In this document: positions 2,279-54,410 of the stretch, piece after piece
How the letters are laid out: each line of letters begins with the position of its first letter
Position numbering within the stretch: position 1 is the first letter of the stretch
From: Ochrobactrum quorumnocens
Lineage (GTDB): Bacteria > Pseudomonadota > Alphaproteobacteria > Rhizobiales > Rhizobiaceae
NCBI RefSeq assembly: GCF_002278035.1
Contig: NZ_CP022603.1
Coordinates: forward strand, 1,859,501-1,923,500
Reading direction: 5' to 3'
Length of the DNA: 64,000 bases
The notes under the pieces: generated by a model
Database searches by the model: none
What the model was told of the DNA's origin: nothing
What the model saw: only the letters and a program-made list of their open reading frames with translations
Position numbers and translations under genes: made by a program

Positions 2279-3904
2279 CTAATCGGTGCCGCAGATAAAG
2301 GCCGCGGCTCTCTCGCCTATCATCATGGCAGGAGCATTGGTATGGGTTCCAATGATAGCCGGCATTATCGAAGCGTCTGCCACCCGAAGTCGCCGAACTC
2401 CACGGACGCGAAGCTGTTCGTCAACCACCGACTTTGAATCGCTCCCCATACGGCACGTGCCGCACAAATGAAAGGCCGTTGCCCCGGTTTGTGCGGCGTA
2501 GGCAAGCAGTTCCTCTTCGCTGTCGCCGACATCATTGCCAGGAGCAAGCTCGCCGACGACGTGGTCAGCTAAAGGAGGGATTGCATTGATCGCTCGCAGC
2601 AACCTGAGTGCAGCTACCGCGGCCTTTCGGTCAAATTCATCCGTAAGGTAATTGACGACAATTGACGGTTGCCCGGTCGCGGTGAGATGCACATGACCCT
2701 TGCTGCGCGGATAGCTTTGGTAGCAGTTAAAACTCATGCCGGGAGCACTATCGAGAACAGCCTTGATCTGGCCTCTCACCTGCTTGAACTGGTACGTCAT
2801 CGCATTGCTGTAGACTTCAAGGTCTTGCGGGCCTTCATCCGCAAACAGCCTGACGAACCCAATTAACTCCGATGGTGTCCGACTGAGCGGTCCATGGCGT
2901 CCGAACATATATTGTAGGCCGCTCCAAACTGCTCCAACCCCCTTGTCGGTGCCGTTAAGGGATTTGAGACCACGTAAACGCAGCTTGGTCTGCAACAACA
3001 TGTGATCTCTTGCGTTTTCACCGACTTCACGGCTTTCCGCACGGATGTCTATTCCCAGACTGCTGAGACGCTCAGGGTCGCCGATACCGGCCCCCTCCAG
3101 CAGCAATGGCGAACCCACTGCCCCCGCACAGAGAATGACTTCAGCTTCAGCGTAGATCGTTTCAGTGCGTCCATCTCGTTGAATTTCGATACCGACCGCC
3201 GCTCCGTTCTCCAGCACCACGCGCTGAACAAGAGACCCGGTGACTATTTCCAGGTTCGAGCGAGCTCGTGCAGGGTCAAGATAGGTGCGAGACGTGCTCT
3301 GTCTAATTCCGCGGTGCACATTGGTCTGCATGCGCCCCACCCCAATCGCCTCGGGCGCGTTAGGGTCAGGCATTTCCGGCAGGCCATAGGCCGCACAGGA
3401 TTCGCGCAACAACTCTATGCAGTCGTGTCGCCCCGCGTTGATCTCGACCTTGACCGGGCCGCCTTTCCCTCGATGCTCGCCGCCTTGAGGGAAATCCTCG
3501 AGCCGCTTGAGAAATGGAAGAACCGCCTCATACCCCCAATCGCCGCAACCTGCCTCGACCCAACGCTGGTAATCGTGCCGGCTACCCAGCGTCCAGGCCA
3601 ATCCGTTGATTGAACTTGATCCGCCGAGGGTCTTTCCTCTGGCGTAGTGTAGCATTCGGTTGTTAAGTCCGGGCTCAGGTCCGGTCTTGTAAGACCAGTC
3701 GTACCGAGGATCTCCAATGGTCTTGGAATAACCAATGGGAATATGCAGCCAGGGATTTCTGTCTTTGTTGCCAGCCTCAATCAAAACCACGTTGATCTTC
3801 GGGTTTTCGCTCAGGCGTGAGGCAACAATCGCGCCGGCTGAGCCAGCTCCCACCACCACATAATCGGCTCTAATAGCATTCTGAGAATCCATCAGCTTAC
3901 TCAT
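2279..3904 (-). CDS. GMC-family FAD-dependent alcohol dehydrogenase/oxidase
   Basis: About 541 residues, the normal length for glucose-methanol-choline oxidoreductases. The N-terminal dinucleotide fold reads VVVGAGSAGAIVASRLS (GxGxxG at 19-24) with the acidic Glu of LIEAG after it. GGSSSING is the GMC signature 1 region. The C-terminal active-site histidines lie in AFHLCGTCRMG and GTHTNAP. An alternative GTG start exists at 3919, and an internal ATG at 3892; none has a strong ribosome site. It oxidises a primary or secondary alcohol using FAD. It is the last gene of the leftward P450-ferredoxin-dehydrogenase block and is separated from the dehydrogenase by 131 bp. Confidence 0.85.
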   Translation of the reverse strand: MSKLMDSQNAIRADYVVVGAGSAGAIVASRLSENPKINVVLIEAGNKDRNPWLHIPIGYSKTIGDPRYDWSYKTGPEPGLNNRMLHYARGKTLGGSSSINGLAWTLGSRHDYQRWVEAGCGDWGYEAVLPFLKRLEDFPQGGEHRGKGGPVKVEINAGRHDCIELLRESCAAYGLPEMPDPNAPEAIGVGRMQTNVHRGIRQSTSRTYLDPARARSNLEIVTGSLVQRVVLENGAAVGIEIQRDGRTETIYAEAEVILCAGAVGSPLLLEGAGIGDPERLSSLGIDIRAESREVGENARDHMLLQTKLRLRGLKSLNGTDKGVGAVWSGLQYMFGRHGPLSRTPSELIGFVRLFADEGPQDLEVYSNAMTYQFKQVRGQIKAVLDSAPGMSFNCYQSYPRSKGHVHLTATGQPSIVVNYLTDEFDRKAAVAALRLLRAINAIPPLADHVVGELAPGNDVGDSEEELLAYAAQTGATAFHLCGTCRMGSDSKSVVDEQLRVRGVRRLRVADASIMPAIIGTHTNAPAMMIGERAAAFICGTD

Positions 3905-4035
3905 TAAAGGACGGCGCACATGCGCACGGAGGTCAAAAGGTACATGCCGTAACCCTGATAAAGGTCTTTGTTGGTTGCGCGTTTCACTCTGGAACCTTTG
4001 TCCTTTTTGTCGGTATCGCTACCGTTCCAATTAAC

Positions 4036-5181
4036 TCACAGCGGAGCTGGACGCAGGGCCACTTTAATCGGCCGCCCGTCTAGTTCATGAGCTGCAGCCT
4101 TCAGCGCTGTCTCTGCCTCTTCGAGGGGATAGGTTTCGCTGACCCAGCCGGCAAGATCGACGCCGCGCTTCTGAAGGTCGAGCGCCAATTGCAGCCCTGC
4201 TTCCACAAAATTGGGATGGGATGCAAAGCTGAGCAAACGGATTTCCTTCATTAGCAGCTCTACCCAATCGATCTGCTGAACGGCCGGCGACGATATGGCG
4301 ACGTTCACAAACGTCCCCATTTTGGCGAGCAACCGGAACGCCAATCGCTTCGCAGGGGGAACGCCCGCCAGATCGATCACCACATTGGCCTGACCGCTAC
4401 GCGCCAACAGATCTTGCGCGACCAGATCGGGGTCGGCATCTCGCGCCATGGCCAGTGTCGTGGTCACTCCCAATTGCCGAGCCAGATCCAGGCGGAGTTC
4501 ATCGGTCTCAAGGCCAACCATGGTGACATTGGCGCCGAGTTCCATGGCAGCGACAGCACAACATAATCCCTGTGGTCCGGGACCGATAACGGCAACATGA
4601 TCGCCAGGTTTCACTCCCGCCGAAGTAACCCAGCGCATACCGTTGGCCAAAGGGGAGCCGCCAACCAATGCTGCACCATCGCTGAGCCCATCGGGCAATT
4701 TGTATGCCAGTGCCTCCTTGGGCACAAAGACATGCGTGGCGTATCCACCCCAAAGCTGAGGAGCCTTCCGGTTGGACGTAATCCCGTAGCCGGTGCCTTT
4801 GCCCTTCTGGTCGCAAAGATAGTATTGCCCTGCCCGACAGGAGTCGCAATTGTGGCATGGCCAACGAGCCTCCAGAATTACGCGGTCTCCTACGCTCAAA
4901 TTTCGTGCGCGGCTTGCGGACTCACCGATTGCCTCAACGGTACCAACAATTTCATCACCGAAGGTCAGGGGGGCGAGGTCATTGATCCACCCAAGTTCGC
5001 CCCGATACATGTGCAATTCGGAGCCATCGACACCGCATAAGGCCACACGGATTAGCATATCCTCGGTGCCCATGTCCGGCAGAGGTACCTCCCGCATTGC
5101 GAGTTTCCCCGGAGAGAGGTATTCGACGATCCTGGCCGTGGCGTGCGCCACTGGCATTGAGCTGTGAGAAGCGTTTCCCAT
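4036..5181 (-). CDS. Zinc-dependent medium-chain alcohol dehydrogenase
   Basis: A 381-residue MDR-superfamily dehydrogenase. The catalytic Cys49 (ALCGVDGSE) and the structural-zinc lobe Cys109-x2-Cys112-x2-Cys115-x7-Cys123 are present. The NAD(P) site is VIGPGPQGL followed by Glu in GLETDE. The usual GHE motif carrying a zinc ligand reads Gly75-Asp76-Glu77, so one catalytic zinc ligand would be Asp instead of His. It starts 3 bp after the ferredoxin stop and clearly shares its transcript. It probably oxidises the alcohol made by the P450 to an aldehyde or ketone. Confidence 0.85.
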   Translation of the reverse strand: MGNASHSSMPVAHATARIVEYLSPGKLAMREVPLPDMGTEDMLIRVALCGVDGSELHMYRGELGWINDLAPLTFGDEIVGTVEAIGESASRARNLSVGDRVILEARWPCHNCDSCRAGQYYLCDQKGKGTGYGITSNRKAPQLWGGYATHVFVPKEALAYKLPDGLSDGAALVGGSPLANGMRWVTSAGVKPGDHVAVIGPGPQGLCCAVAAMELGANVTMVGLETDELRLDLARQLGVTTTLAMARDADPDLVAQDLLARSGQANVVIDLAGVPPAKRLAFRLLAKMGTFVNVAISSPAVQQIDWVELLMKEIRLLSFASHPNFVEAGLQLALDLQKRGVDLAGWVSETYPLEEAETALKAAAHELDGRPIKVALRPAPL

Positions 5182-5184: not shown

Positions 5185-5499
5185 CTATTCCTGCGGCGCC
5201 ACTTGAAAGCGCATTTCCTTTAGAGCTTCGTTAACCCGGATCTGACAACACAGGCGTGAGCATTCAGTATAAGCTTCCAAGACCTCAAGCATCTCAGTCT
5301 CGGCCAGCGTCGGCGCCGGTAGCCGACTGATTGCAGCGGGGTCAAGATAGACATGACAGGTTGCGCATGACAGCTCTCCACCGCACTCTCCGATAATGCC
5401 GGGCACTGAATTCTGAACAGCGTTCCACATCACGGAGGTGTCTTCGACTGCATTTAGGGTTAGCTCGCCGCTCTCTGTTACAAAAGTTATCTCAACCAT
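5185..5499 (-). CDS. [2Fe-2S] ferredoxin, adrenodoxin/putidaredoxin type
   Basis: A 104-residue ferredoxin with the cluster ligands Cys39-x5-Cys45-x2-Cys48-x36-Cys85 (ECGGELSCATCH and SRLCCQI), the spacing of the adrenodoxin/putidaredoxin class that feeds electrons to bacterial class I P450s. ATG 5499 is preferred over the upstream in-frame ATG at 5520 because AGAGGA sits 9 bases before it. It is placed 42 bp after the P450 gene, so it is almost certainly the P450's redox partner. No ferredoxin reductase gene is present in the window. Confidence 0.9.
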   Translation of the reverse strand: MVEITFVTESGELTLNAVEDTSVMWNAVQNSVPGIIGECGGELSCATCHVYLDPAAISRLPAPTLAETEMLEVLEAYTECSRLCCQIRVNEALKEMRFQVAPQE

Positions 5500-5541
5500 C
5501 GGCCACGGTCCTCTGTTCATCTGCTAAGGAGGTGGAGGCAA

Positions 5542-6789
5542 TCACTGGAATTTGACCATCAACTGACTAAGGCCGGTGACCTGATGGTCCACGACCCAGT
5601 GCGGAGTGTCATCGCCGGCGAATTCGATATCGGGAAAAGCAGAGAAAATCTTGGAAAACAGTACCTTCAGTTCCAATCGCACAAGAGCGCGTCCCAAGCA
5701 GGCATGAATGCCTTCCCCGAGGGAGAGATGGTCATTAGGAGTGCGACGGATATCGAACTTGTGCGGATTGTCGAACTTGCGTTCATCCTTGTTGCCAGAA
5801 ACTGCGAAGAGGACAACCCAGTCCCCAGGATTGATCGTTTTGCCATGCATCTTGTAAGACGCGCGGGCAACCCGTAGCCGTCCCCTCGCCGGAGTGGTCC
5901 ATCGCAGAATCTCGTCTACGGCGCCGTCGATCAGCGTTGGATTATCGATCAGTAACTGTCGCTGCTCCGGATCCTTAAGAAAACACCACATCCCGACCGA
6001 AATTGCATTCCGGGTGGTTTCGAGCCCGCCTAAAATGAGCAAAAGGAACCAGCCTGCGATTTCGTGCTCATCAAGCGGCGTGCCGTCGACCACCATACGG
6101 GCGATGATCGAAGCCAGATCATCACGCGGGTTGGCCAATCTGTCGCGCGCCATGCGCATGGAATAGTCGCCGATCGCTTCGATTCCAATGAATGACGTTT
6201 CTTCGTGAGTTTTCCCAGGGATTGCGCCACGTGGATCTGCGGGAGAGAAAGCCTGCCATGCGAAGCGACCGAGTTCATCCCAGTCACTCTCTGGGATACC
6301 CAGCATCTTGAACACCACATGCATCGGCAGGACGGCTGCGAATTCGTCGACGACATCCGCCGTCCCCTTTTTGCGGATATCTTCGATGATCTCGTCTACG
6401 ATCTTTTCAATATCGGCGCGCATGCGACCGACCATAGGCGTACTGAAGTGCTTGTTCATGGGCTGCCGCATAACTGTGTGAAGCGGCGGATCCATGAGTG
6501 TGACGCTGGCGTCCCACATAAGCTTGCGCCTCTGCAGGGTAGTCAATCGCCGCCCCGACCGCGGAACACGGCTGTCGAAAGACGAACTAAAGGTCATTGC
6601 ATCGTTCAGGATTGCCTTCATGTCGTCGTAGCGTGTAACGACCCAAAAGTTGCGCCCATAATCATCGGGCTCGGCCCAGTGCAGCGGGTCTTCGTCGCGT
6701 AGGCGACGGAATATCTCATGGTGCTCGCCAGACGGATACCATTCGGGCCGCACAAGATCGGTGTCATAGCTGCTCAGGTCCTTTTCCAT
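5542..6789 (-). CDS. Cytochrome P450 monooxygenase
   Basis: A 415-residue soluble bacterial P450. The I-helix oxygen-activation motif is GGLETT (254-259, usual AGxET/DT), the K-helix ExxR is EILR (293-296), and the heme-binding loop is LGEGIHACLGR with thiolate ligand Cys364. No signal or membrane anchor is seen. The ETTRNAIS I-helix tail is common among P450s acting on terpenoid, steroid or alkyl side-chain substrates, but the substrate cannot be named. It is the first gene of the leftward block and lies about 62 bases downstream of the predicted start site of a minus-strand sigma-54 promoter. Confidence 0.92.
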   Translation of the reverse strand: MEKDLSSYDTDLVRPEWYPSGEHHEIFRRLRDEDPLHWAEPDDYGRNFWVVTRYDDMKAILNDAMTFSSSFDSRVPRSGRRLTTLQRRKLMWDASVTLMDPPLHTVMRQPMNKHFSTPMVGRMRADIEKIVDEIIEDIRKKGTADVVDEFAAVLPMHVVFKMLGIPESDWDELGRFAWQAFSPADPRGAIPGKTHEETSFIGIEAIGDYSMRMARDRLANPRDDLASIIARMVVDGTPLDEHEIAGWFLLLILGGLETTRNAISVGMWCFLKDPEQRQLLIDNPTLIDGAVDEILRWTTPARGRLRVARASYKMHGKTINPGDWVVLFAVSGNKDERKFDNPHKFDIRRTPNDHLSLGEGIHACLGRALVRLELKVLFSKIFSAFPDIEFAGDDTPHWVVDHQVTGLSQLMVKFQ

Positions 6790-6863: not shown

Positions 6864-6878
6864 GCAAGCTCTGTGCCA
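6864..6878 (-). promoter_or_regulatory. Sigma-54 (-24/-12) promoter for the P450 operon
   Basis: Read on the minus strand the 15 bases are TGGCACAGAGCTTGC, matching the RpoN consensus TGGCACRNNNNTTGC at every fixed position. Transcription should start near 6852, leaving about 62 bases before the P450 ATG. It faces away from an equally good plus-strand site at 7075-7089. Confidence 0.78.
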
Positions 6879-6957
6879 AGTCGGCATCTCTGCACTGCGA
6901 TGCGACGAAAGCCTGCGCACTCCAGCCACCACCGCGGCACCGAGTGCCCGTCAAGAA

Positions 6958-6988
6958 TTGTTGCCGCACAACAAACACGCATATGCGT
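6958..6988. promoter_or_regulatory. Paired palindromes, likely activator sites shared by two sigma-54 promoters
   Basis: Two adjacent dyads: TTGTTG-N5-CAACAA at 6958-6974 and the perfect 12-mer ACGCATATGCGT at 6977-6988. They lie about 80-100 bases upstream of both divergent sigma-54 promoters, and the midpoint between those promoters (about 6976) falls between the two dyads. That is the usual placement of enhancer sites for NtrC-type activators. Binding is inferred, not shown. Confidence 0.55.
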
Positions 6989-7074
6989 ATGACGACGACA
7001 ATTCACCCCAACAGTGTATCCGCCAAGGACATACCCTTCCGAAATACATGTTTCAGCTTGAACTCAGTTATCTG

Positions 7075-7089
7075 TGGCACGGACTTTGC
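7075..7089 (+). promoter_or_regulatory. Sigma-54 (-24/-12) promoter for the SDR-lyase-ALDH operon
   Basis: TGGCACGGACTTTGC fits the RpoN consensus TGGCACRNNNNTTGC exactly. The predicted start near 7101 leaves about 48 bases before the TTG start of the SDR gene. It is divergent from the P450 promoter, with shared palindromes midway. Confidence 0.78.
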
Positions 7090-7148: not shown

Positions 7149-8042
7149 TTGGAAAATTTTCTCGGCAGGAACGCAGTCGTAACGGGGGGCGGAAGCGGTA
7201 TTGGTCGATCAATCTCACTCGCACTTGCCGGTGCCGGCGCAAATGTCCTGGTGGCTGATATCGATGCGCAAGCGGCTCAAACAGTTGCCTCCGATGCGTG
7301 CGAACTAGGCGTTGCAGGATTGGCTCAGCAAGTCGATGTGTCAAATTTCGATGACGTAACAAAGTTGGCGACACGCGCGTTTGGCGAATTTGGGTCGGTG
7401 GACATTCTCGTGAATAATGCTGGAGTTACACTGAGGCCATTTCGGGCATCCTGGGATACAAGTCTCGAAGATTTTCGCTGGATCATGGATGTGAATTTTT
7501 GGGGCGTGGTTCATGGCCATATGGCTTTTGTTCGATCCATGATCGACCGGCCAGGCGTAAAACACATCGTCAACACATCATCGGTCGGGTCGATTGTTTC
7601 CGTTGCAGGTCATTCTGCATACTGTGCGTCCAAATCAGCAGTGGATGGATTTTCATATAGCGCCAGGGAAGAGCTTCGCGGCTTCGGCATCGGCGTCAGC
7701 TTGTTGCATCCGGCCGGTGTTAAGACAGACATTCCAACGAGCGAACGTTGGCGGACTGAGACAGACAGATCGGGTAATCGCGATGTTGTTCCCTGGTCGC
7801 GCTATGTGAGCGAGGTCGTCAACCCTTCGATCGACGATCCCACCAATGCTGCGAGGCAGGATCCTGTCGAGTTTGCCACAGAGCCATGGCAGTATATCTG
7901 GCCTGAGGATGTCGGCCGCATCGTCATCGAGGGTATCCGCGCCAACCGATGCAACATCCTAACTCACCCGCCACTTACAGAGCGCATCCGTGCTCGTGCT
8001 GAGACCATCATTGCCGGTGCTCCTCAGTCGCCATCGGTCTAG
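7149..8042 (+). CDS. Short-chain dehydrogenase/reductase
   Basis: A 297-residue classical SDR. The cofactor motif TGGGSGIG is at 12-19, the Asp of VADID suggests NAD preference, NNAG is at 89-92, and the catalytic triad is Ser145, Tyr158 and Lys162 (YCASK). The start is a TTG at 7149 with GAGAGG about 9 bases upstream; no ATG in frame gives a complete Rossmann fold. It heads a rightward operon under a sigma-54 promoter, 9 bp ahead of the lyase gene. It probably interconverts a hydroxyl and keto group on a pathway intermediate. Confidence 0.87.
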   Translation: MENFLGRNAVVTGGGSGIGRSISLALAGAGANVLVADIDAQAAQTVASDACELGVAGLAQQVDVSNFDDVTKLATRAFGEFGSVDILVNNAGVTLRPFRASWDTSLEDFRWIMDVNFWGVVHGHMAFVRSMIDRPGVKHIVNTSSVGSIVSVAGHSAYCASKSAVDGFSYSAREELRGFGIGVSLLHPAGVKTDIPTSERWRTETDRSGNRDVVPWSRYVSEVVNPSIDDPTNAARQDPVEFATEPWQYIWPEDVGRIVIEGIRANRCNILTHPPLTERIRARAETIIAGAPQSPSV

Positions 8043-8051: not shown

Positions 8052-8960
8052 TTGAACGTTTCTGAAAAGACGAACTTGCGCCAGCGCCTGGACGAACCTG
8101 GAGCGATTTACATGCCGGGTTGCTATGACGCGCTGTCAGCGAAGCTGATAGAAAGTGCCGGCTTTGAGGCCGCCGCTATCAGCGGGTTCGCGCTCGAAGG
8201 CGCTCACTTAGGTGGGCCTGATATCGGGTTAATGACGCTGACGGAACTTGTGGAGCAGTCGGCTCGCATTACCGACGCGGTCAATATTCCTGTCATCGCC
8301 GATGTTGATACCGGATTTGGCGGTGTGCAGAACATTCACCGCACCGTTCGCCTGGCCGAGCGCGCAGGCCTATCGGGCATTCACCTTGAAGACCAGACAT
8401 TGCCAAAGAAATGCCCGTTGCTTCCAGGTCGGAAAGTAGTTGCACTCCAGGAAGCCAAGGATCGCTATGCCGTGGCCCTGGAGGCCAGGAGTAATACCAA
8501 CTTCATTATCATTGCGAGGACCGATGCAGACATCATCGGTTACGACGAACAGATCATGAGGGCCAACGAGTACCTGGCTACGGGCGTAGACTGTGTCCTG
8601 CCGATGATGATCGAGCTCAACGGCGCATCCTTCCACGATCTGCCGCCAGATAAGCAGATGAGGCATATTGAGAGGGTCGTCACCGATATCGATGGCCACG
8701 TAATGTATGTGGGGCCTCCCCCAGGTGGCTATACCGCCTTCGATCTGGGCGCGATCGGAGTAAAGCTAATCTCTCTCTCAGCTGGCACAATCAATGCTGC
8801 GGCGACGGCAATGATGATCGCTCTTGGAGAATTGAAGTCCACCGGAAGGGTATCGTTATTTCAGGAGAAACCAGAACGCCTGGAAGCCGGCTCCGGGCTG
8901 CTGCAGTTCCTAGGGGTGGACTTCTATCTGGATCTCGAAAGGCGCTTCGTGCGCGATTAA
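8052..8960 (+). CDS. Isocitrate lyase/PEP mutase-superfamily lyase
   Basis: A 302-residue protein of the PEP mutase/(methyl)isocitrate lyase superfamily. It shows the metal site ADVDTGFGG (83-91), the HLEDQ strand (111-115) and the flexible catalytic loop LPKKCPLLPG (118-126), where true isocitrate lyases have KKCGH. Loss of the Gly-His after Cys121 argues against plain methylisocitrate lyase; 2-oxo acid cleavage, oxaloacetate decarboxylation or cleavage of a tertiary hydroxy acid are alternatives. TTG 8052 is supported by AGGAG just upstream. It lies between an SDR and an aldehyde dehydrogenase in a co-directional set. Confidence 0.8.
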   Translation: MNVSEKTNLRQRLDEPGAIYMPGCYDALSAKLIESAGFEAAAISGFALEGAHLGGPDIGLMTLTELVEQSARITDAVNIPVIADVDTGFGGVQNIHRTVRLAERAGLSGIHLEDQTLPKKCPLLPGRKVVALQEAKDRYAVALEARSNTNFIIIARTDADIIGYDEQIMRANEYLATGVDCVLPMMIELNGASFHDLPPDKQMRHIERVVTDIDGHVMYVGPPPGGYTAFDLGAIGVKLISLSAGTINAAATAMMIALGELKSTGRVSLFQEKPERLEAGSGLLQFLGVDFYLDLERRFVRD

Positions 8961-9015: not shown

Positions 9016-10539
9016 ATGTCTCAAACATCAATTGGCGGCCAGCCGCACGGCATCCGGCAACCCGGTGCGTTTTACATAGGTGGTGAATGGGTGGCACCGG
9101 AGTCTGGTGATCGTCTCGATGTCGTTACCCCTTCAACGGAAGAGGTTTTCGGCCGGTTCGCAGCGGCAAATATACAGGATATCAACAAGGCGGTTGGAGC
9201 CGCACGCATTGCATTTGACGAGGGGCCGTGGCCTCGTTTGACACATGCCGAACGGGCAGAATATCTCAGGGCATTGTCGAAAGAATTGTCTTCACGCATT
9301 CCGGACCTGAGCAATATCTGGACATCCGAGGTGGGTGTGACATGCAGAATTGCGAACGCTTCCGTGCCACGCTCTGCAGCTGTCTTCGACTATTACGCCG
9401 GGTTCGCCGAACGCTTCCCCTTTGTCGAAAGGCATCAGCCGCGCAGTGGGGGCAACCATGGCTATCTTGTCCATGAGCCAGTGGGCGTCGTCGGCGCGAT
9501 CGTCGCCTGGAACGGCTCGCTGGGGCTAACTGTCTGGAAATGCGCGCCAGCCCTTTTGGCAGGTTGTACGGTAGTGGTTAAGGCGTCGCCCGAATCCCCC
9601 GGTCCGGCCTGGGTTATAGCTGAGGCCGCTGCTGCGGTCGGCATTCCGTCTGGTGTGTTCAACGTTGTGCTCGCAGACCGCGAAGTTTCGGAGCATCTCG
9701 TTCGCCATCCTGATGTCGATAAGATTACATTTACGGGCTCGAGTGCCGTCGGCAAACGCATCGCTTCCATTTGTGGCGAACGTGTCGCGCGCTGCACGCT
9801 CGAACTCGGCGGGAAATCGGCTGCCCTCATTCTCGATGATTACGATGTGGAGAAGGCTGCCCTATCGATTTCCCAATCAGCACGTGTGTTGTCGGGACAG
9901 ATTTGTTCGTCACTCACGCGGCTCATAGTGCCACGGACGCGTCAGGACCAGCTCATTGAAGCCCTTTCGGCAGCATTTCTGTCTACAAAGGTTGGCGATC
10001 CGTTCGACAGAGAAACAGATATGGGGCCACTCGCCTCTTCGCGCCAACGAGACCGGGTTGAGAGTTACATCGCCAAGGGCCGGGACGAAGGGGCAAGACT
10101 CGTTGTGGGCGGAAAGCGCCCGGACCGGCTGAATAGGGGTTTCTACGTGGAGCCGACTGTATTTTCCGATGTCGACAACGCGATGACGATTGCCAGAGAC
10201 GAGATTTTTGGCCCCGTGCTCAGTGTGATACCGGTCGATGATGACGAGCAGGCAATAGCCGTTGCCAACGATAGTCCTTACGGCCTCAATGCGTCCGTAT
10301 TCACCGATGACGCAGACCGCGCATGGGAAATTGCGCGGAGACTGCGATCAGGCACTGTAGGACATAACTCGTTCCGCACAGATTTTTACATCGCAGCGGG
10401 TGGCTTCAAACAGTCAGGTCTGGGCCGTGAAGGCGGCAGCGAGGGGCTCAGGGGCTTTCTGGAACCCAAAACTATTATCCTCGACGCGGAACCGACGAAG
10501 GGAAGAGAACAGTCAAATAGCACGGGTGCTTTGGGGTAA
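9016..10539 (+). CDS. NAD(P)-dependent aldehyde dehydrogenase
   Basis: A 507-residue ALDH-superfamily enzyme. The oxyanion Asn166 (VAWNGS), the general base Glu263 (LELGGK) and the catalytic Cys297 (SGQICSS) are all visible. It also has the FTGSSAVGK nucleotide loop and the DEIFGPVLSV region. ATG 9016 has AAAGGAG upstream. It should oxidise an aldehyde intermediate to the acid that the downstream CoA ligase could activate. A 55-bp spacer separates it from the lyase gene, so the SDR-lyase-ALDH set is likely one operon. Confidence 0.92.
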   Translation: MSQTSIGGQPHGIRQPGAFYIGGEWVAPESGDRLDVVTPSTEEVFGRFAAANIQDINKAVGAARIAFDEGPWPRLTHAERAEYLRALSKELSSRIPDLSNIWTSEVGVTCRIANASVPRSAAVFDYYAGFAERFPFVERHQPRSGGNHGYLVHEPVGVVGAIVAWNGSLGLTVWKCAPALLAGCTVVVKASPESPGPAWVIAEAAAAVGIPSGVFNVVLADREVSEHLVRHPDVDKITFTGSSAVGKRIASICGERVARCTLELGGKSAALILDDYDVEKAALSISQSARVLSGQICSSLTRLIVPRTRQDQLIEALSAAFLSTKVGDPFDRETDMGPLASSRQRDRVESYIAKGRDEGARLVVGGKRPDRLNRGFYVEPTVFSDVDNAMTIARDEIFGPVLSVIPVDDDEQAIAVANDSPYGLNASVFTDDADRAWEIARRLRSGTVGHNSFRTDFYIAAGGFKQSGLGREGGSEGLRGFLEPKTIILDAEPTKGREQSNSTGALG

Positions 10540-10959
10540 AGGTGCGCGATCGCTCTTCTGTGGGGCGTCCTACAGGTCGCGGAAACGGTGCTTCCGGGTG
10601 GATGAGGATACAGTTTTGCTGAACAAGGCACGGAGTGCCAGTCTCTGCGGCGACGGAGAGGCTCGGCGTTGTGTTGCCTGAAAAAAAGGGGATGAGCGGC
10701 ACTCAAGCCGGCGAGACGGCAAGCCGTGGAGCCTTGAGAAGAACTGAATTATCGGATGCGATGTTTGGCTCAGTTCAGCGACGCTGAACAATTTGCTTTG
10801 CCTAACCGAAGGGCCGTTCGCGAGTTGACCCAAAGTTCATTGGTGACATCAGAAAGACACTGGAAACAGTGGTGGGGAAAGCAATAAGCCGATGGCTTGG
10901 ATGATAAGATCCGATGTCTCTTGGCTTCAACATAAATCAAAATCTTGGGAGAGGTTGAA
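10540..10959. other. 420-bp intergenic region before the outer-membrane protein gene
   Basis: No convincing gene was found. It contains the palindrome at 10773-10789, a second dyad CACTG-N4-CAGTG at 10858-10871 and GGCAC-N3-GTGCC near 10629-10641. Its length suggests the outer-membrane protein has its own promoter. No good -24/-12 site was found here. Confidence 0.5.
10773..10789. promoter_or_regulatory. 17-bp perfect palindrome upstream of outer-membrane protein gene
   Basis: GTTCAGCG-A-CGCTGAAC has 8-bp perfect arms around a single base, and lies 170 bp upstream of the ATG. It looks like an operator or activator site. The protein that binds is unknown. Confidence 0.45.
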
Positions 10960-11838
10960 ATGAAGCTTTTGAGATACACGTTTGCGGGGACGTTGCTCGC
11001 GTTTTTTGGGTTGGCAGCAGATAAGTCTCACGCGATTGACATCCAGCCATATGACGTGCTGACGGCACCACCTGGAACTGCCATTTGGACCCAGTATTTC
11101 AGTTTTGGCAAGTCAAACAGCGCATATCTCAATGGCGCTGACGTTGGTGGATCGCTTCAGTCTTTTGCGATTGCTCAGCGCCTGACCTATTATTTCGATA
11201 TCCCAGGTCAGAAGGCATTGATCACTGGCATTATCCCTTATGTCGACTTACGAGACGGAAGCCTTGCGGGCGTTCCACTCAATGAGACGGATGGTATTGG
11301 GGATACGACGCTTGCCTTCACTTACGGGTTATACAATGATTTCGCGACGAAGCGTAACTTGGACTTTATCGCCTATCTGGGTGTCCCTACGGGTAAATAC
11401 AATGGCTTTGACCCACTCAACCCGGGAGCCAATCGAACGTCGTACGCACTGCAAATGAGCGGTTCTTATGGGTTGGGAGATAACTGGCTCCTGGAAGGCG
11501 CGATCGACGTCTCCTTCTATCGAGACAACAAGAATGCCGATGGCAATGGAAGCGTTCTGGCGCAGGATCCGACATACGCCGCCCAAGCCTGGCTCAGCTA
11601 TGCCGTAACTTCCACATTGTCATTCTCGGGTGGCTGGGGCACCTCGTGGGGCGGTGAGCAGAAGCTGAACGGCATTGCCAGCGGTTTCAACTCTGAGCGG
11701 CAGCAAATTCGTGGCGCTGTCTCCTATTGGGTCACTCCAACTTGGCAGCTTCTGGGGCAGGTCAACCATGATTTCGATGTGAAGGGTGGGTTCCAGTCTG
11801 ATACTTCATATCTCTTGAGAGTGAGCAAGCTTTTCTGA
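10960..11838 (+). CDS. Outer-membrane protein of the MetA-pathway (phenol degradation) family
   Basis: About 292 residues. ATG 10960 with GGGAGAGG upstream is chosen over an in-frame TTG at 10945. The N-terminus is a signal peptide (MKLLRYTFAGTLLAFFGLAA...SHA), and the rest consists of alternating beta-strand segments rich in aromatic and glycine residues. It ends in ...LLRVSKLF, with the terminal Phe typical of outer-membrane barrels. The family (Phenol_MetA_deg) is found in operons for aromatic or hydrophobic substrates and is thought to aid uptake. It follows the aldehyde dehydrogenase by 420 bp and fits a substrate-entry role for the island. Confidence 0.82.
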   Translation: MKLLRYTFAGTLLAFFGLAADKSHAIDIQPYDVLTAPPGTAIWTQYFSFGKSNSAYLNGADVGGSLQSFAIAQRLTYYFDIPGQKALITGIIPYVDLRDGSLAGVPLNETDGIGDTTLAFTYGLYNDFATKRNLDFIAYLGVPTGKYNGFDPLNPGANRTSYALQMSGSYGLGDNWLLEGAIDVSFYRDNKNADGNGSVLAQDPTYAAQAWLSYAVTSTLSFSGGWGTSWGGEQKLNGIASGFNSERQQIRGAVSYWVTPTWQLLGQVNHDFDVKGGFQSDTSYLLRVSKLF

Positions 11839-12036
11839 CGATTGACTTCCTTAATATCTGGTGAGAGCGACCTGCATGTCATACAGCGGGGCGCTCCATT
11901 TCCACTAAGGCAAGAATGCGACATAGTCATATATTTCCTCGTTTTATACGATCCACGAGGATGGCCTGGTGGGTTCAAAGATGAAGTGCGACTTTGCGAA
12001 TGACGCCAATAGGTTATCAATTGCAAGAAAACTTCA

Positions 12037-12269
12037 ATGGAATGCACCTACTCCTGCTCCCATATAGACCTTAATGAACGTCGCAGGATCGCGCGTTGGT
12101 GCCAGGTCGGCCTGAGTGGATATCATCGCTGAGAAGCTCGGGCGGCATCGTTCGACGATTTTCCGCGAGCGCAGTCCCAATGTATTCATCGACAAGGAAT
12201 GGCCTGAACTGAGCGGCTACCACTGCGTGAGGGCGCATGACATGGCTAGCAAGCGCGCGCCAAGCAGAG
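12037..12269 (+). pseudogene. IS30-family transposase, 5' fragment
   Basis: From ATG 12037 the frame reads METCTYSC-like residues, then HIDLNERRRIARWCQVGLS, the N-terminal HTH region of IS30 transposases. A frameshift near 12113 moves the continuation (VDIIAEKLGRHRSTIFRE) to another frame. The fragment ends where an IS21-family element has inserted. The 3' fragment resumes at 14859. The gene was already decayed before or after that insertion. Confidence 0.75.
12265..12269. repeat. Target-site duplication (left copy) of IS21 element 1
   Basis: CAGAG lies directly before the left inverted repeat and is repeated at 14854-14858 directly after the right inverted repeat. Five bases is within the normal range for IS21-family elements. 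Confidence 0.7.
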
Positions 12270-12374
12270 TGCGTATTTCAGTTAAAGCGGACAGCGTTTC
12301 CGCTAATATGCGGACATTGTTTTCATTAAATTGCGGACAGTTTTTGTTTCTATGTTTTACGAGTCATTTGTTGA

Positions 12375-13151
12375 TCACTCAGTGATGATTTCTGCGTTTT
12401 GAGTTTGCGTCAAGACAGCCCCTGCTTTTTGCTTTCGCATGCTATCTCCTTCAAGGTTGATGCGATGTGCATTGTGGACAATACGATCGAGTATTGCGTC
12501 GGCTACGGTGGCATCTGCGATGACGTCGTGCCACGCTGACACGGGGATTTGAGCTGTTATGAGGGTTGATCGGCGTTGATAGCGTTCTTCTACGATTTCA
12601 AATAAATGAAGACGCTGCTGCTCAGTAAGGGCATGTGTTCCAAAATCATCGAGGATTAGGAGTTGTACTTTTGCAAGCCTGTCCATCAGACGTGGGAAGC
12701 GCCCATCAAGACGCGCAACAGCCAGGTCCTCGAACAGACGGGGTGCTCGCACATAAAGCGCTGAGTGATCATGGCGTGCAGCTTGCCGGGCAAATGCACA
12801 GGCAAGCCAGGACTTTCCTGTTCCGGTTTTACCAGTGATGATCATGTTCTCATGATTGTTAACCCACTGTCCCTGTGCCAGGGCCATTGTGTTGCGTCGG
12901 TCAAGCTTTCGAGATGCTGCAAAATCAATATCTTCGATACACGCTTGTGGAAAGCGTAGCTTTGCCGCTGCAAGTCGGTTTGTCAGGCGTTTATCGGCAC
13001 GCATGGCCACTTCTCTGTCGAACATGAGGCCAAGCCATTCATCTCGGCTCAGTTCATGACTATTGTCGTGTTCCGCCAATTCACGATAAGCGCTCGCCAT
13101 CCCGGGTAGACCAAGCGCGTGCATTTGTTCAAGGGTGGGGTTTGTAAGCAT
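12375..13151 (-). CDS. istB: IS21 helper ATPase IstB
   Basis: A 258-residue AAA+ ATPase that assists the IstA transposase in target selection. Walker A is GKTGTGKS (near 108-115) and Walker B is LLILDDFG (near 170). The N-terminal [21 protein letters not shown] helical domain is typical. It appears intact and starts 18 bp after the istA stop. Its partner istA is disrupted. Confidence 0.9.
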
Positions 13152-13169
13152 ATCTGATCTTTCTCTGTA

Positions 13170-14692
13170 TCAATGGTAATAGCCCCGACCACGAATATTG
13201 ACGTGTGGTGGAAGCGATTGACCGGTTTCCGCGACAGGCTTTGCCCTGTCGAGGCCGGATTTAAGAATGGAATTGACCGAAGAATATGAAAGCGCCTGAA
13301 TAGTCAGCGCGCGTTCGCATGCAGCTTCAAGCCGTTGCGGATCATAGCGCCGTGCTAAAGATAAAATGCCCATCACGGCTCGAAAGCCATGTTCAGGATG
13401 TGGTTTGTCATGCATGAGCCGTTCAACGAATATAGCGGTGCTTGTGCCGATTTTCTCCGCCTGTCGAACCAAGCTTGCTGCATTCAGGCCAGCGTAGCGC
13501 TGATGAGATTTGGGCATATGCTCATTGATAGTGACATGACCATTGCGTTGAGAACGACGAATATCTCAATAACGCGGTGCGTAAGACGAATAGTCACTTT
13601 TTGACCGATCAAGCTATGCGGAACCGAATAAAATGTCTTGTCGACCTCGACATGATAATCGGGATGTACTTTTGCCGTCTTCCACTCAGCATATTCAAAG
13701 GGCACTTCCGGTAAGTCTGATAGTACAGTGCGCTCAATCTCCTCAAAGAGTTGACGACGGGATTTATCGTAATGGCGCATTGGACGATTGTTGAGATCTT
13801 CCAGTAAGGCAGCAATAGTTGTATTCAAGTCCGACAGGGAGAAGAAGGTCCGGTTCCTCAGTCGTGCAAGTATCCAGCGCTCGACAATCAGTACCGCGCC
13901 TTCGACTTTGGCTTTGTCCTTCGGTTTGCGCGAACGCGTCGGCAGAATAGTGGTGTCATAGTGCTCTGCCATGGCTGCAAAAGTAGGATTGATGGTTGGT
14001 TCGAACCAAAGTGGCTTCGCGACACCGGCTTTAAGATTGTCGCAGACAATCGTTTTAGGAACGCCGCCAAAGAACGACAGAGCTCTAATCTGCCCCTCGA
14101 TCCAATCAGGTAGCTTCTGGCTAAGACTGGCATAGGCAAAGGTCAAATTGGAAGCAGGAAGTACTGCGACAAATACCTGCGCTTGACATATTTCTCCGGT
14201 CTTCGGATCAATCAATGGTAGCGTTTGCCCAGCATAATCTGTCTGCATTACAGCACCCGCCTCATGACGGTTGCGATAGGACGGGTTTATCTTGCAAGCA
14301 AAAGCGGCGTAGTTGGTACAAAACCATGTGAAGCCGTATCCATCAGGATGCGCTTGCCGGTACTCCTGCCAAAGCAATGTTAATGTTACGCCCTTGCGTT
14401 TAAGTTCACGAGCAATCGTGCTCCAATCCGGAATGCTCAAATCCTGAGGCGGTCGTCCCGCACGCTTGAACACAAGTTGTTCCAGCGCATTATCATTCTC
14501 ATAGGCAGACAATAATGGCCAACTGCAGATACCAGCTTCACGGGCACGCAGCAGATACGTACTGACGGCAGTCTTTCCGATTTCAAGCCGTTCCGAAATC
14601 TCACGAACAGATAGCCCTTGCTCATAGCTCAGGCGCAGAATTGATCGTATGTCCTTCACGTTGATACGTCTCGCTTGCTTCCTGCGCGGCAT
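13170..14692 (-). pseudogene. istA: IS21 transposase IstA, frameshifted
   Basis: Starting at ATG 14692 (GGAG upstream), the protein carries an HTH (LSVREISERLEIGKTAVS) and the DDE core: Asp in MQTDYAG, Asp in VCDNLKAG and Glu in KAKVEGAV. The frame runs into unrelated residues after HRVIEIF near 13545 and stops at 13484. The expected C-terminus (RSQRNGHVTINEHMPKSHQ...) continues in another frame to the stop at 13170. A single-base loss or two-base gain near 13545-13555 explains this. All catalytic residues lie before the shift. Confidence 0.82.
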
Positions 14693-14853
14693 GAAAACTC
14701 CATGGAAAAACCATAAGGAAATCATGCTGCGTGGCGATCGCAAAACACACTTCAAAAACTGTCCGCATATTAGCGAAATCACTGTCCGCTAATTACTGAA
14801 ACACGTGTCCGCTATTTAGTGAAGAAACTGTCCGGGAATTACTGAAACACGCA

Positions 14854-14858
14854 CAGAG
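14854..14858. repeat. Target-site duplication (right copy) of IS21 element 1
   Basis: CAGAG directly follows the right inverted repeat and copies 12265-12269. Confidence 0.7.
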
Positions 14859-15035
14859 GAAGCTTTCGCGCTTCTTGCACGTCAGGCAGTCCGTCATCGA
14901 CCGGATCTTATACGGCTGGTCGCCGCAGCAGATTGCGGGCCGGATGCGGCTGGAGCGCCATTCGACCTCCGTCAGCCACGAGACAATCTACCAGTTCGCC
15001 CATTCGGCGGACGGACATGCCGTTAAGCTCGCCAT
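14859..15035 (+). pseudogene. IS30-family transposase, 3' fragment
   Basis: The segment encodes EAFALLARQAV in one frame and then SVIDRILYGWSPQQIAGRMRLE...SHETIYQFAHSADGHAVKL in another. These are consecutive parts of the IS30 transposase mid-region, so there is a second frameshift near 14888. Homology fades after HAVKL near 15035, and the catalytic C-terminal half is missing. About 118 unassigned bases follow before the thiolase stop codon. Confidence 0.72.
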
Positions 15036-15152
15036 GCCAGACTTTCTCAACGCCGCTCTCAGTACCGTCTTCCTCAGTTATCGCCTACTTCCGTTACGAG
15101 CGGCAGTTATGGGGGATCGGCGAGCTGGAATATGAGCATAATGTAGCCTTGC

Positions 15153-20684: not shown

Positions 20685-20699
20685 GCAATAACCATGCCA
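20685..20699 (-). promoter_or_regulatory. Sigma-54 promoter for tctCBA
   Basis: On the minus strand the bases are TGGCATGGTTATTGC, one mismatch from TGGCACRNNNNTTGC. The predicted start near 20673 leaves about 53 bases to the tctC ATG. Confidence 0.68.
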
Positions 20700-20787
20700 A
20701 ACGTCGACTGGCGATTGGGGTTTTGGTACAAGAGGTCTCAAAGAGATTGCTTCAGTTTGCGCTGGTTCTGATCACCTGAAGTGTATT

Positions 20788-20801
20788 TTTTGAAGTCAAA
20801 A
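20788..20801. promoter_or_regulatory. Palindrome midway between divergent sigma-54 promoters
   Basis: TTTTGA-AG-TCAAAA is a perfect dyad. Its centre (about 20794) is within two bases of the midpoint of the promoter pair at 20685-20699 and 20893-20907, about 95 bases from each. The position suits an activator site, but the sequence differs from the dyads in the P450/SDR intergenic region. Confidence 0.42.
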
Positions 20802-20892
20802 TGTCGCGCATCTGTCGTTGTCAAGGACAGGAGAGGTGCCTTATTTAGCTTCAGTTAATCAATCGGCATACTTGGCGAATGATATCCGCCTC

Positions 20893-20907
20893 TGGCTCGG
20901 GACTTGC
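20893..20907 (+). promoter_or_regulatory. Sigma-54 promoter for the enoyl-CoA hydratase gene
   Basis: TGGCTCGGGACTTGC has one mismatch from TGGCACRNNNNTTGC. The predicted start near 20919 leaves a leader of about 145 bases to the TTG start codon. Confidence 0.6.
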
Positions 20908-21932: not shown

Positions 21933-21947
21933 TGGCACAAAGCTTGC
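21933..21947 (+). promoter_or_regulatory. Sigma-54 promoter for the SCP-x thiolase operon
   Basis: TGGCACAAAGCTTGC matches the RpoN consensus TGGCACRNNNNTTGC at every fixed position. The predicted start near 21959 gives a leader of about 145 bases to ATG 22104, the same leader length as at the enoyl-CoA hydratase gene. Confidence 0.72.
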
Positions 21948-29223: not shown

Positions 29224-29909
29224 TGGCTCATCTCCCGCGACCAGGAGATCGCATTGACGTAGATGCCCAATGGGTTGGACTTCAGCCGTTCGGCGTCACG
29301 CGGAGGCTGCAGGACAATCGTGAGGATCGCTGTCCAGCGCTGCGTGCCGGAGAGCTGGCCGTTCTCATAGTGGCGCTCCGTCCAGGCCACGCGGAAACTA
29401 TCGGGCGATGCCCGGATGACACTCGATACCTCGACGGCGATCTGGTCCCGGCCGACCTTGGTGAAGGGATCATTGGCGCGGGCGTAATCGTTGAGCGCGG
29501 CCGCTCCTCGATCAGTGGTAAACTCATATGCACGCAGCCAGTTCTGGCGAACGATGATCGCGTCGGCGGGGATCGAACGGACCTGCTCGATGAAGCGTCC
29601 GAGATGCCAGGCCACCTGCGGATCGGTCGGCCGGTAGTCGGCGGTTGCCGGGGCGACAGCCTGCGACTGGCCGAGATTGTCGACCTGTACGACCCAGGGA
29701 ACGACGGTGCCGCGCGCCGACTGCCAGACCAAGGCTGAAGCAAAACCGGCCGACAGGATCAGCGAGCCGAAGGCCATAAAGCGCCAGTTCCTAGCCTGGA
29801 TGCGCGCCGAACCTATGCGATCGTCCCAGACCTGAGAGGCCTTCTGGTAGGGTGTTTCGGGTTCGGGTGATTTGCCATAGTGGGTTGCGGGGCGTTTGAA
29901 GATGCTCAT
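29220..29909 (-). CDS. trbF: Conjugal transfer protein TrbF (VirB8-like)
   Basis: A 229-residue bitopic inner-membrane protein. Its cytoplasmic N-terminus (YQKASQVWDDRIGSARIQARNWR) precedes one membrane helix near 45-65 and a periplasmic NTF2-like VirB8 domain. It scaffolds channel assembly. Its start overlaps the trbL stop by one base, and it overlaps trbG by four. Confidence 0.92.
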   Translation of the reverse strand: MSIFKRPATHYGKSPEPETPYQKASQVWDDRIGSARIQARNWRFMAFGSLILSAGFASALVWQSARGTVVPWVVQVDNLGQSQAVAPATADYRPTDPQVAWHLGRFIEQVRSIPADAIIVRQNWLRAYEFTTDRGAAALNDYARANDPFTKVGRDQIAVEVSSVIRASPDSFRVAWTERHYENGQLSGTQRWTAILTIVLQPPRDAERLKSNPLGIYVNAISWSREMSQ

Positions 29910-31231
29910 CAGCGGTCACTTTCAGAAAGGTTGATGGAAGAGCCGCCGCCATGGGCGTCGCCGGAGCGCACGGCATGGGCGGCGGCCGAGACGCCGTGGG
30001 ACATCGATTGCGAGCGCTTCATGCGCTTTGCCCAGGCCGGCTCGCCGCCAGATGCGGCAGGAGATGCAGCCTCAGAGGACCCGCCCGTGGTCTCGAAGGC
30101 GGATTTGGCGCCGTCAGAAAAGCTGGTTTTGACGCTGTTGGTGGCTTTGGACGCGGCGCGCTTGAGGGGCGAGACGGCGGCGGAGCCTGCGGCTTTCGTC
30201 ACACCGCCGAGACCGGAGGCCACACAGCCTGCGCCGGTTTGACCGTCAGAGGCGAGGCTATAGGCGGTCGATGCGCCGCCGGCGGCCGCGGCGCCACCAC
30301 GAACGGCGGCAGCTCCACCGGACAGGGCAGCAGCGCCGCCTCTGGCCGCGAGACCGGCAGCACCAGCGCCAGCCATCATCGCACCGCCAACCGCAAGCCC
30401 GGTGCCGACGGCAGCGCCAGCTCCAAGCTGCGGACCGCCAGAGACGAGGCCGTTGGCGATGCCGGGGCCGAAGATGCCGAGACCGAGAAGGGACAGTGCC
30501 GCCAGCACGATCGCCATGGCGTCATCAATGCTAGGCGCTGCTCCCCCGAACCCTGCGGTGAACTGGCCAAACAAGGTTGATCCGATGCCGATGATGACGG
30601 CGAGCACCAGCACCTTGATGCCGGAAGAAATCACATTGCCCAACACCTTCTCGGCCATGAAGGCTGATTTGCCGAACAGGCCGAAGGGAATGAGCACGAA
30701 GCCGGCCAATGTCGTCAACTTGAACTCGATCAGCGTGACAAAGAGCTGGACGGCGAGAATGAAGAAGGCGAGCAGCACCAGCGCCCAGGCAAACATCAGG
30801 CAGGCGATCTGAATGAAGTTCTCGAAGAAGGACCAGTAGCCCATCAGGCCGGAGATCGATTCGAGCAGCGGTCGACCCGCATCGAGGCCGGTCTGGGCGA
30901 CCTTGCCGGGGCACAGCAATTCGGCGGTCGTGAATCTGGTGCCTGACCCTTTGAGGCCAAGCCCGGCGAAACTGTCGAAGACGATCTTCGCGAGATTGTT
31001 CCAGTTGCCGATGATGTAGGCGAAGGCGCCGACGAACAGGGTTTTTTTGACCAGGCGCGCGACGATGTCGTCGTCGGCGCCCCAGGACCAGAACAGGGCG
31101 GCCAGCGTCACGTCGATGACGATCAGGGTGGTGGCAATGAAGGCGACTTCGCCGCCGAGCAGGCCAAAGCCGCTGTCGATGTAGCTGGTGAAGACCTGGA
31201 GGAATTGGTCAATGACGCCAGTGCCGCCCAT
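29909..31231 (-). CDS. trbL: Conjugal transfer protein TrbL (VirB6-like)
   Basis: A 440-residue polytopic membrane protein with about six hydrophobic segments in its first 290 residues. The N-terminus is MGGTGVIDQFLQVFTSYIDSGFGLLGGEVAF, and a long Ala/Gly/Ser-rich hydrophilic tail follows, as is normal for TrbL. It forms part of the inner-membrane channel. It follows the small trbK-like gene by 2 bp. Confidence 0.92.
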   Translation of the reverse strand: MGGTGVIDQFLQVFTSYIDSGFGLLGGEVAFIATTLIVIDVTLAALFWSWGADDDIVARLVKKTLFVGAFAYIIGNWNNLAKIVFDSFAGLGLKGSGTRFTTAELLCPGKVAQTGLDAGRPLLESISGLMGYWSFFENFIQIACLMFAWALVLLAFFILAVQLFVTLIEFKLTTLAGFVLIPFGLFGKSAFMAEKVLGNVISSGIKVLVLAVIIGIGSTLFGQFTAGFGGAAPSIDDAMAIVLAALSLLGLGIFGPGIANGLVSGGPQLGAGAAVGTGLAVGGAMMAGAGAAGLAARGGAAALSGGAAAVRGGAAAAGGASTAYSLASDGQTGAGCVASGLGGVTKAAGSAAVSPLKRAASKATNSVKTSFSDGAKSAFETTGGSSEAASPAASGGEPAWAKRMKRSQSMSHGVSAAAHAVRSGDAHGGGSSINLSESDR

Positions 31232-31233
31232 GA

Positions 31234-31539: not shown

Positions 31540-31558
31540 GGTGTTTCCCTTTCCGGGC

Positions 31559-34761: not shown

Positions 34762-34775
34762 GATGGTGTGGCTCC

Positions 34776-39314: not shown

Positions 39315-39401
39315 GGAATTGCGGGTAATTTCCATTGAGAACTGAGCCATGTGACCCTGCCTCCACTGTTTTGTGCAGCGGAGGACAACGGAGTGATCCA
39401 C

Positions 39402-51567: not shown

Positions 51568-51568
51568 G

Positions 51569-54401: not shown

Positions 54402-54410
54402 GGCGGTGTC

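What the first reader, a model, noticed from the sequence alone, without database searches (positions are those of the whole stretch)
6864..7089. Back-to-back sigma-54 promoters with palindromes exactly midway
The 359-bp gap between the P450 operon and the SDR operon carries TGGCACAGAGCTTGC (minus) and TGGCACGGACTTTGC (plus), both fitting the RpoN consensus at every fixed base. Two dyads (TTGTTG-N5-CAACAA and ACGCATATGCGT) straddle the midpoint, about 80-100 bp from each promoter. One activator bound there could loop to both promoters and switch the two halves of the pathway together. Such a symmetric bidirectional design is uncommon.
Basis: partly seen in the sequence, partly recalled or inferred. 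Interest (0 to 1): 0.75.

Follow-up and report, generated by a model that had tools for sequence, protein, structure and literature searches.

The report
Two-way promoter with private sigma factor
Two operons of a bacterial breakdown gene cluster start back to back from matching sigma-54 promoter sequences, and they are predicted to be switched on together by one activator working with a second, private sigma-54, whose genes lie in the same cluster and whose likely promoters carry an unusual letter seen mainly where that second sigma gene is present.

Summary
The two back-to-back sigma-54 sequences are real, exact and conserved in a relative. They belong to a larger unit. Seven exact TGGCAC-N5-TTGC sites lie in 40.7 kb (0.30 expected). 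Beside them stand a second rpoN (rpoN2) and, divergent from it, an enhancer-binding protein (bEBP) gene. The cluster holds three back-to-back pairs (209, 211, 208 bp apart; the finding is the middle one). Each contains two TGTC-N9-GACA-like boxes exactly 31 bp apart. The doublet recurs in Advenella, where an orthologous cluster has a bEBP but no rpoN2.

Target sites read TTGC-G where an rpoN2-type gene adjoins the bEBP (19 of 22 sites, three loci) and mostly TTGC-T where none does (G in 7 of 42). Position -11 is the reported discriminator between RpoN1 and RpoN2 in Cereibacter sphaeroides. Best reading: a catabolic cluster that likely carries its own sigma-54/activator pair with retuned promoters; this gap is one of three two-way switches. 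Divergent sigma-54 pairs as such are known. Nothing here is experimental.

The parts
6864..6878 (-). sigma-54 promoter-like site of the P450 operon, TGGCACAGAGCTTGC, -11 = G
   Evidence: conserved in G025
7075..7089 (+). sigma-54 promoter-like site of the SDR operon, TGGCACGGACTTTGC, -11 = G
   Evidence: conserved in G025
6984..7000 (.). predicted activator box a, TGCGTATGACGACGACA (2 mismatches to TGTC-N9-GACA), centre 6992
7015..7031 (.). predicted activator box b, TGTATCCGCCAAGGACA (1 mismatch), centre 7023, 31 bp from box a
   Evidence: 4 of 3000 shuffles of this gap give a doublet as good
5542..6789 (-). cytochrome P450 (first gene of the minus operon)
5185..5520 (-). 2Fe-2S ferredoxin
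4036..5181 (-). zinc-type alcohol dehydrogenase
2279..3919 (-). GMC oxidoreductase
7149..8042 (+). short-chain dehydrogenase (TTG start; first gene of the plus operon)
8052..8960 (+). PEP mutase / isocitrate lyase superfamily protein
9016..10539 (+). aldehyde dehydrogenase
10945..11838 (+). Phenol_MetA_deg family protein (porin-like; porin role recalled)
20685..20699 (-). sigma-54-like site of pair 3 (minus arm, upstream of the TctC gene), TGGCATGGTTATTGC, -11 = G
20893..20907 (+). sigma-54-like site of pair 3 (plus arm, upstream of the enoyl-CoA hydratase gene), TGGCTCGGGACTTGC (one mismatch), -11 = G
20782..20798 (.). predicted activator box of pair 3, TGTATTTTTTGAAGTCA, centre 20790
20813..20829 (.). 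predicted activator box of pair 3, TGTCGTTGTCAAGGACA, centre 20821, 31 bp from its partner
21933..21947 (+). sigma-54 promoter-like site of the thiolase operon, TGGCACAAAGCTTGC, -11 = G

Best explanation
The 359-bp gap carries two divergent, conserved sigma-54 promoter sequences that are predicted to be fired together by one cluster-encoded enhancer-binding protein bound at two boxes 31 bp apart between them, likely with the cluster's own second sigma-54 (RpoN2) rather than the housekeeping one. Shown by sequence: the exact sites, their conservation, three such pairs in one cluster, the box doublets, the rpoN2 and bEBP genes some 30 kb away at the cluster's other end, and G at -11 in nearly all target sites. 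Inferred: that the bEBP binds TGTC-N9-GACA and contacts holoenzyme on either side by looping; that RpoN2 prefers or tolerates -11 G; that this sets the regulon apart from that of RpoN1; and that the P450 and SDR operons are induced together by a pathway substrate sensed by the bEBP's N-terminal region.
For: 7 of 41 exact genome-wide sites fall in 40.7 kb; 0.30 expected, Poisson P 3e-8. rpoN2 and the bEBP gene stand divergently in the cluster, and the relative with the same gap has both. Three pairs at 209, 211 and 208 bp in G000 and 212, 211 and 210 in G025; pair 1 also in Advenella at 206, between orthologous genes: three flanking proteins compared are 84-92% identical. Box doublet at 31 bp, total 3 mismatches or fewer, in 3 of 3 pairs (0 of 1000 shuffle sets reach 3). 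With motif and spacing fixed beforehand, 5 of 10 Advenella upstream regions have it (mean over 71 spacings 0.23; most in 1000 shuffle sets 1). At 42 sites near further bEBP orthologs, a single box with up to 1 mismatch occurs at 22 for gap 9 and at 0-9 for the 14 other gaps tried; exact boxes 10 against 0-2. -11 G: 19 of 22 with an adjacent rpoN2-type gene against 7 of 42 without, Fisher P 7e-8. Likely housekeeping control, upstream of the genus's P-II genes: T in 28, A in 2, G in 0 of the 30 loci with a site; 1 more locus had none and 4 of 35 genomes were not examined. -11 is reported as relevant for RpoN1/RpoN2 discrimination in Cereibacter sphaeroides (PMC11999139 and PMC3162934, passages).
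Against: No expression or binding data. The 31-bp doublet is not general: at 37 sites near 15 other betaproteobacterial bEBP loci it occurs at 4, no more than spacings 12 and 19 (4 each; mean 0.92), and at 0 of 7 sites in G017. None of the 7 single promoters of G000 has it; 2 have doublets at 21 or 41 bp and 5 have none. Pair 2, the finding, has the weakest doublet of the three (3 mismatches in 16; 4 in G025) and it is off-centre. Some loci without rpoN2 also have G: G854 2 of 2, G842 2 of 8, G898 1 of 3, G1005 1 of 5, G1008 1 of 1. G017's second RpoN lies outside the tight 18-row RpoN2 clade and shares 1 of its 8 signature residues, yet 5 of its 7 sites have G. rpoN2's own promoter has A in three genomes but G in G981. 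In Bradyrhizobium DOA9 two RpoN proteins bound mostly the same promoters in vitro (PMC13207237, passages). Related genomes are not independent counts.
Confidence: 0.74

Rival explanations
1. The promoters are real sigma-54 promoters shared by one bEBP, but the housekeeping RpoN1 serves them; rpoN2 is redundant or serves something else, and -11 G is lineage drift.
For: An RpoN match is present in all 35 genus genomes. Some loci without rpoN2 have -11 G. Two RpoN proteins of Bradyrhizobium DOA9 bound mostly the same promoters.
Against: G in 11 of 12 exact non-CDS cluster sites of G000 against 0 of 30 P-II sites in the genus, G000's own included. The association recurs in G017 and G981. An orthologous promoter with the same core, TGGCACGTAAATTGC, has T in Advenella and G in G000, beside genes 84-92% identical in protein.
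Confidence: 0.17
2. The promoters work as described, but the first reader's dyads bind the main activator or an additional co-regulator (for example a repressor) specific to this pair.
For: TTGTTG-N5-CAACAA keeps both arms in G025 and sits near the midpoint.
Against: Two such dyads are expected in 12% of shuffles. Neither exact dyad occurs elsewhere in the 98.5-kb region scanned, so not at the other two pairs. ACGCATATGCGT is broken in G025. The 31-bp doublet is at all three pairs and recurs in Advenella.
Confidence: 0.06
3. One or both sites are chance matches and the operons start from ordinary promoters.
For: The reversed pattern gives 17 matches in this genome against 41 for the true pattern, so many matches are chance.
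Against: Clustering (P 3e-8), placement upstream of first genes, conservation, recurrence as pairs, and the rpoN2 and bEBP genes in the cluster.
Confidence: 0.03

Closest known systems
Desulfovibrio vulgaris orp1/orp2 divergent operons (sigma-54, EBP DVU2106, IHF); PMC3897727, passages seen
   Same: Two divergent sigma-54 operons coregulated by one cognate EBP; the paper proposes that it acts through palindromes between the promoters.
   Different: There IHF sites between the promoters were tested; here no strict IHF consensus was found in the three pairs. Here the design is repeated three times and a second sigma-54 gene lies in the cluster.
Cereibacter (Rhodobacter) sphaeroides RpoN1-RpoN3 with cognate bEBPs; PMC11999139, passages seen; the 2006 paper it cites for -11 is not held
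   Same: Several RpoN paralogs with cognate activators; position -11 reported as relevant for the discrimination of RpoN1 and RpoN2 promoters.
   Different: There flagella, nitrogen fixation and an Xre regulator; here a catabolic gene cluster, with rpoN2 and the bEBP gene divergent neighbours, an arrangement seen here in alpha- and betaproteobacteria.
E. coli zraP/zraSR divergent spacer; PMC8743547, passages and table rows seen
   Same: Divergent spacer listed among RpoN-holoenzyme binding sites.
   Different: Single housekeeping RpoN; zinc response (recalled).
Bradyrhizobium sp. DOA9 RpoNc/RpoNp; PMC13207237, passages seen
   Same: A second, megaplasmid-borne RpoN with a smaller predicted regulon and a shifted motif.
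   Different: The motif shift is reported just before GG and before GC, not at -11; both proteins bound most tested promoters alike.

Membership tests
sigma-54-dependent promoter | invariant GG and GC with 10 bases between them | tested here: met
sigma-54-dependent promoter | extended consensus YTGGCACGrNNNTTGCW, that is A/T at -11 | tested here: not met
   both sites have G at -11; consensus as printed in PMC13207237
sigma-54-dependent promoter | activator sites about 80-150 bp upstream | tested here: met
   box centres 114 and 145 bp from the P450 site, 83 and 52 bp from the SDR site; one lies nearer than usual; range from PMC13207237
sigma-54-dependent promoter | transcription start 12 bp downstream and dependence on RpoN | not testable with these tools
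   no expression data
divergent sigma-54 pair with shared EBP (orp-like) | two outward-facing sigma-54 promoters with EBP palindromes between them | tested here: met
   by sequence only; three pairs
divergent sigma-54 pair with shared EBP (orp-like) | one cognate EBP shown to bind and co-activate both | not testable with these tools
   bEBP gene found, binding not tested
sigma-54 factor (RpoN2) | AID, core-binding and DNA-binding domains with an intact RpoN box | tested here: met
   Pfam domains; ARRTVAKYR present
specialised RpoN paralog with its own promoter set | promoters differ from those of RpoN1 at a discriminating position | tested here: met
   -11 counts; correlation only
specialised RpoN paralog with its own promoter set | identified RpoN residues that read the changed base | tested here: inconclusive
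   8 residues invariant in 9 RpoN2-clade rows and absent from 10 RpoN1 rows, C-terminal part only; G017's factor shares 1 of 8

The most novel reading that the evidence does not exclude
A portable, orthogonal sigma-54 circuit: a catabolic regulon exists in a T-at-(-11) form run by housekeeping RpoN and a G-at-(-11) form run by a captured RpoN2/activator pair, with whole sets of promoters rewritten at one base while the enzyme genes stayed nearly the same; rpoN2 itself, whose promoter keeps A at -11 in three genomes, is switched on by housekeeping RpoN, making a sigma-54-to-sigma-54 cascade that opens three two-way gates at once.
Probability: 0.35. Interest if true: 0.8.

Novelty: new variant of a known kind. 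Interest (0 to 1): 0.62.

Why it matters
Many bacteria share one sigma-54 among several activators. Here a catabolic cluster appears to bring both partners and to differ from a sigma-sharing ortholog at one promoter base, so the question of how sigma-54 paralogs keep their promoters apart gets a natural with-and-without pair in two bacterial classes. It also gives a predicted operator (TGTC-N9-GACA) for a bEBP subfamily and three matched two-way switches.

Tried and rejected
Strict IHF consensus in the three pairs: none. The 31-bp doublet as a rule for all bEBP orthologs: not borne out. A residue explanation for -11 G: inconclusive. Trees: a first tree of 42 rows held three very long rows (G801, G548, G253), which I put down to my longest-frame rule, and is set aside; a second of 41 rows uses frames checked for the RpoN box, and G906 was left out because no such frame was found. 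It splits 14 housekeeping-type rows (with P0018) from 27 secondary rows (support 100/100); RpoN2 sits in an 18-row clade (P0001-P0017, P0022; 100/100), and G017's second RpoN lies among the 27 but outside the 18. Substrate: the P450's nearest solved relatives are CYP125-like, CYP126 and others including P450terp, and an FAD dehydrogenase matches 3-ketosteroid dehydrogenase models below their cut-offs; left open. Literature searches that might have shown a catabolic cluster with its own rpoN gave 0, 1 (Ralstonia rpoN1/rpoN2, listing only) and 0 papers; the held open-access library only. No structure was predicted.

Full report
What is there. The window lies at G000:C2:1859501-1923500 of a 5.65-Mb genome. 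The P450 operon (P450, ferredoxin, zinc-type ADH, GMC oxidoreductase) and the SDR operon (SDR, PEP mutase/isocitrate-lyase-like protein, aldehyde dehydrogenase, MetA-type porin) diverge from a 359-bp gap. Both sigma-54 sites are exact. The genus RpoN1 looks alphaproteobacterial to me (judged from recall), and a contig of the same length as that of the closest relative, G025:C57, is titled Brucella sp. 21LCYQ03; I infer a Brucella/Ochrobactrum-type organism.

A regulon, not a lone pair. TGGCAC-N5-TTGC occurs 41 times in the genome, against 17 for the pattern read backwards. Seven of the 41 lie within C2:1840710-1881447, where 0.30 are expected (Poisson P 3e-8). All seven lie outside the ORFs kept at 120 aa or more; of the other 34 only 4 do. 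Allowing one mismatch adds sites conserved in G025, among them both arms of a third divergent pair at window 20685(-)/20893(+). The three pairs are 209, 211 and 208 bp apart in G000 and 212, 211 and 210 in G025.

Its own sigma and activator. At C2:1833078-1834781 (-) lies a bEBP gene (567 aa; PAS below cut-off, AAA+, Fis-type HTH), and divergent from it at 1834928 (+) an rpoN of 459 aa with all three sigma-54 domains. All 35 genus genomes have an RpoN match. G000 and G025, the only 2 of 35 with a DNA match to the gap, both have a second one; so do G001, G013 and G017, while the second rows of G002 and G009 look like split genes. In the protein database, RpoN2 relatives include an unnamed 86% match, a Rhizobiaceae MAG (66%) and Alcaligenaceae such as Castellaniella defragrans (51%) and Paenalcaligenes niemegkensis (46%).

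The operator. Each pair contains two TGTC-N9-GACA-like boxes whose centres are exactly 31 bp apart, in both genomes. For the finding they are TGCGTATGACGACGACA (centre 6992) and TGTATCCGCCAAGGACA (centre 7023): 3 mismatches in 16, reached in 4 of 3000 shuffles of this gap. The motif was derived from G000, so Advenella incenata served as a test: P450 ortholog 68%, bEBP 44%, one rpoN match, 34%. Of the 15 sites with up to one mismatch listed there I used 11, leaving out four inside genes; they make 10 upstream regions, of which 5 have the 31-bp doublet with at most 3 mismatches (mean over 71 spacings 0.23; most in 1000 shuffle sets 1). Near further bEBP orthologs, 22 of 42 sites have a single box with up to one mismatch at gap 9, and 0-9 at the 14 other gaps tried. 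Misses: the doublet does not generalise to them. At 37 sites of 15 loci the 31-bp spacing gives 4, the same as spacings 12 and 19, and in G017 it gives 0 of 7. None of the 7 single promoters in G000 has it with at most 3 mismatches; two have doublets at 21 and 41 bp.

The -11 base. In G000, 11 of 12 exact TGGCAY-N5-TTGC sites outside genes have G next; the twelfth, before rpoN2, has A. G025 also gives 11 of 12. The likely housekeeping promoter before the P-II gene (TGGCAC-N5-NTGC) has T in 28 and A in 2 of 30 loci with a site, G000's own being T; one more locus had none and 4 of 35 genomes were not examined. Advenella has T in 10 of 10; of its four left-out sites inside genes the next bases are T, C, A and G. 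One of the ten is an ortholog with the same core as in G000, TGGCACGTAAATTGC, followed by T instead of G. It flanks a pair whose three compared proteins are 84-92% identical between the two bacteria, whereas the bEBPs are only 44% identical and Advenella lacks rpoN2: the enzymes and transporters match while the regulators differ.

The wider comparison. I collected bEBP orthologs (E 1e-110 or better): 3 of 385 class genomes, the window's own included, and 23 of 268 genomes of Advenella's family, and fetched their surroundings, giving 29 regions with the earlier ones. Adjacent divergent rpoN2-type genes occur in G000, G025, G017, G925 and G981. The other 23 of 28 genomes searched have only RpoN matches of 33-43% identity, none of them beside the bEBP in the regions fetched. 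Counting G000, G017 and G981, G stands at 19 of 22 non-CDS sites; in 21 regions without such a gene, 15 of which have sites, at 7 of 42 (Fisher P 7e-8). Dropped before this count: G025 as a near-copy of G000, G925 (no site), and G816, G848 and G822 as look-alikes of G842. Exceptions: G854 (2 of 2 G), G842 (2 of 8), G898, G1005 and G1008 (one each). A tree of 41 RpoN rows splits housekeeping-type from secondary factors (100/100); RpoN2 lies in an 18-row clade within the secondary group, and G017's factor in that group but outside the clade.

Mechanism. The bEBP likely binds the doublet and, by looping, contacts sigma-54 holoenzyme at either promoter, so the two operons would rise together. A private RpoN2 using -11 G would keep the regulon apart from that of RpoN1. 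The promoter of rpoN2 keeps A in G000, G025 and G017 but G in G981; a cascade from RpoN1 to RpoN2 is therefore possible but not settled.

Against the known. Divergent sigma-54 operons under one EBP are known (D. vulgaris orp1/orp2, PMC3897727, passages). A role of -11 in telling RpoN1 from RpoN2 promoters is reported for C. sphaeroides (PMC11999139 and PMC3162934, passages). I did not find, in the held library and with the searches, a catabolic cluster with its own RpoN and promoters changed at -11. I rate it a new variant of a known kind.

Noticed in passing
window 29909-36327: TrbL/VirB6, VirB4/TraG-like, VirB3 and type II/IV secretion ATPase genes, a conjugation-type secretion locus a few kb beyond the last catabolic genes.
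   Followed up: no
window 12375-14782, 37735-41703, 44197-45807: IS21, IS3-like and IS66 transposase genes; an IS21 element sits right after the SDR operon, inside a stretch (about 11926-15151) that has no counterpart in the G025 alignment.
   Followed up: partly
G017:C47:18397-21690 (L197): bEBP ortholog (62%) with a divergent second rpoN in another genus member in which the P450 was not found on the contig; five of seven sites have -11 G.
   Followed up: partly
G842, G816, G848, G822 (L230-L237): Two bEBP orthologs about 16 kb apart in one region, without an adjacent rpoN2, suggesting paired activators.
   Followed up: no
L075:4755-7728 and L202:2588-6460: Transport and thiolase proteins 84-92% identical between the window's alphaproteobacterium and Advenella, which suggests recent horizontal transfer.
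   Followed up: partly
G000:C2:677792 and 1093072: Identical sigma-54-like sites with identical near flanks, probably within a repeated element.
   Followed up: no
window 50893-56360: Two-component system next to an HlyD/MacB-type efflux system.
   Followed up: no
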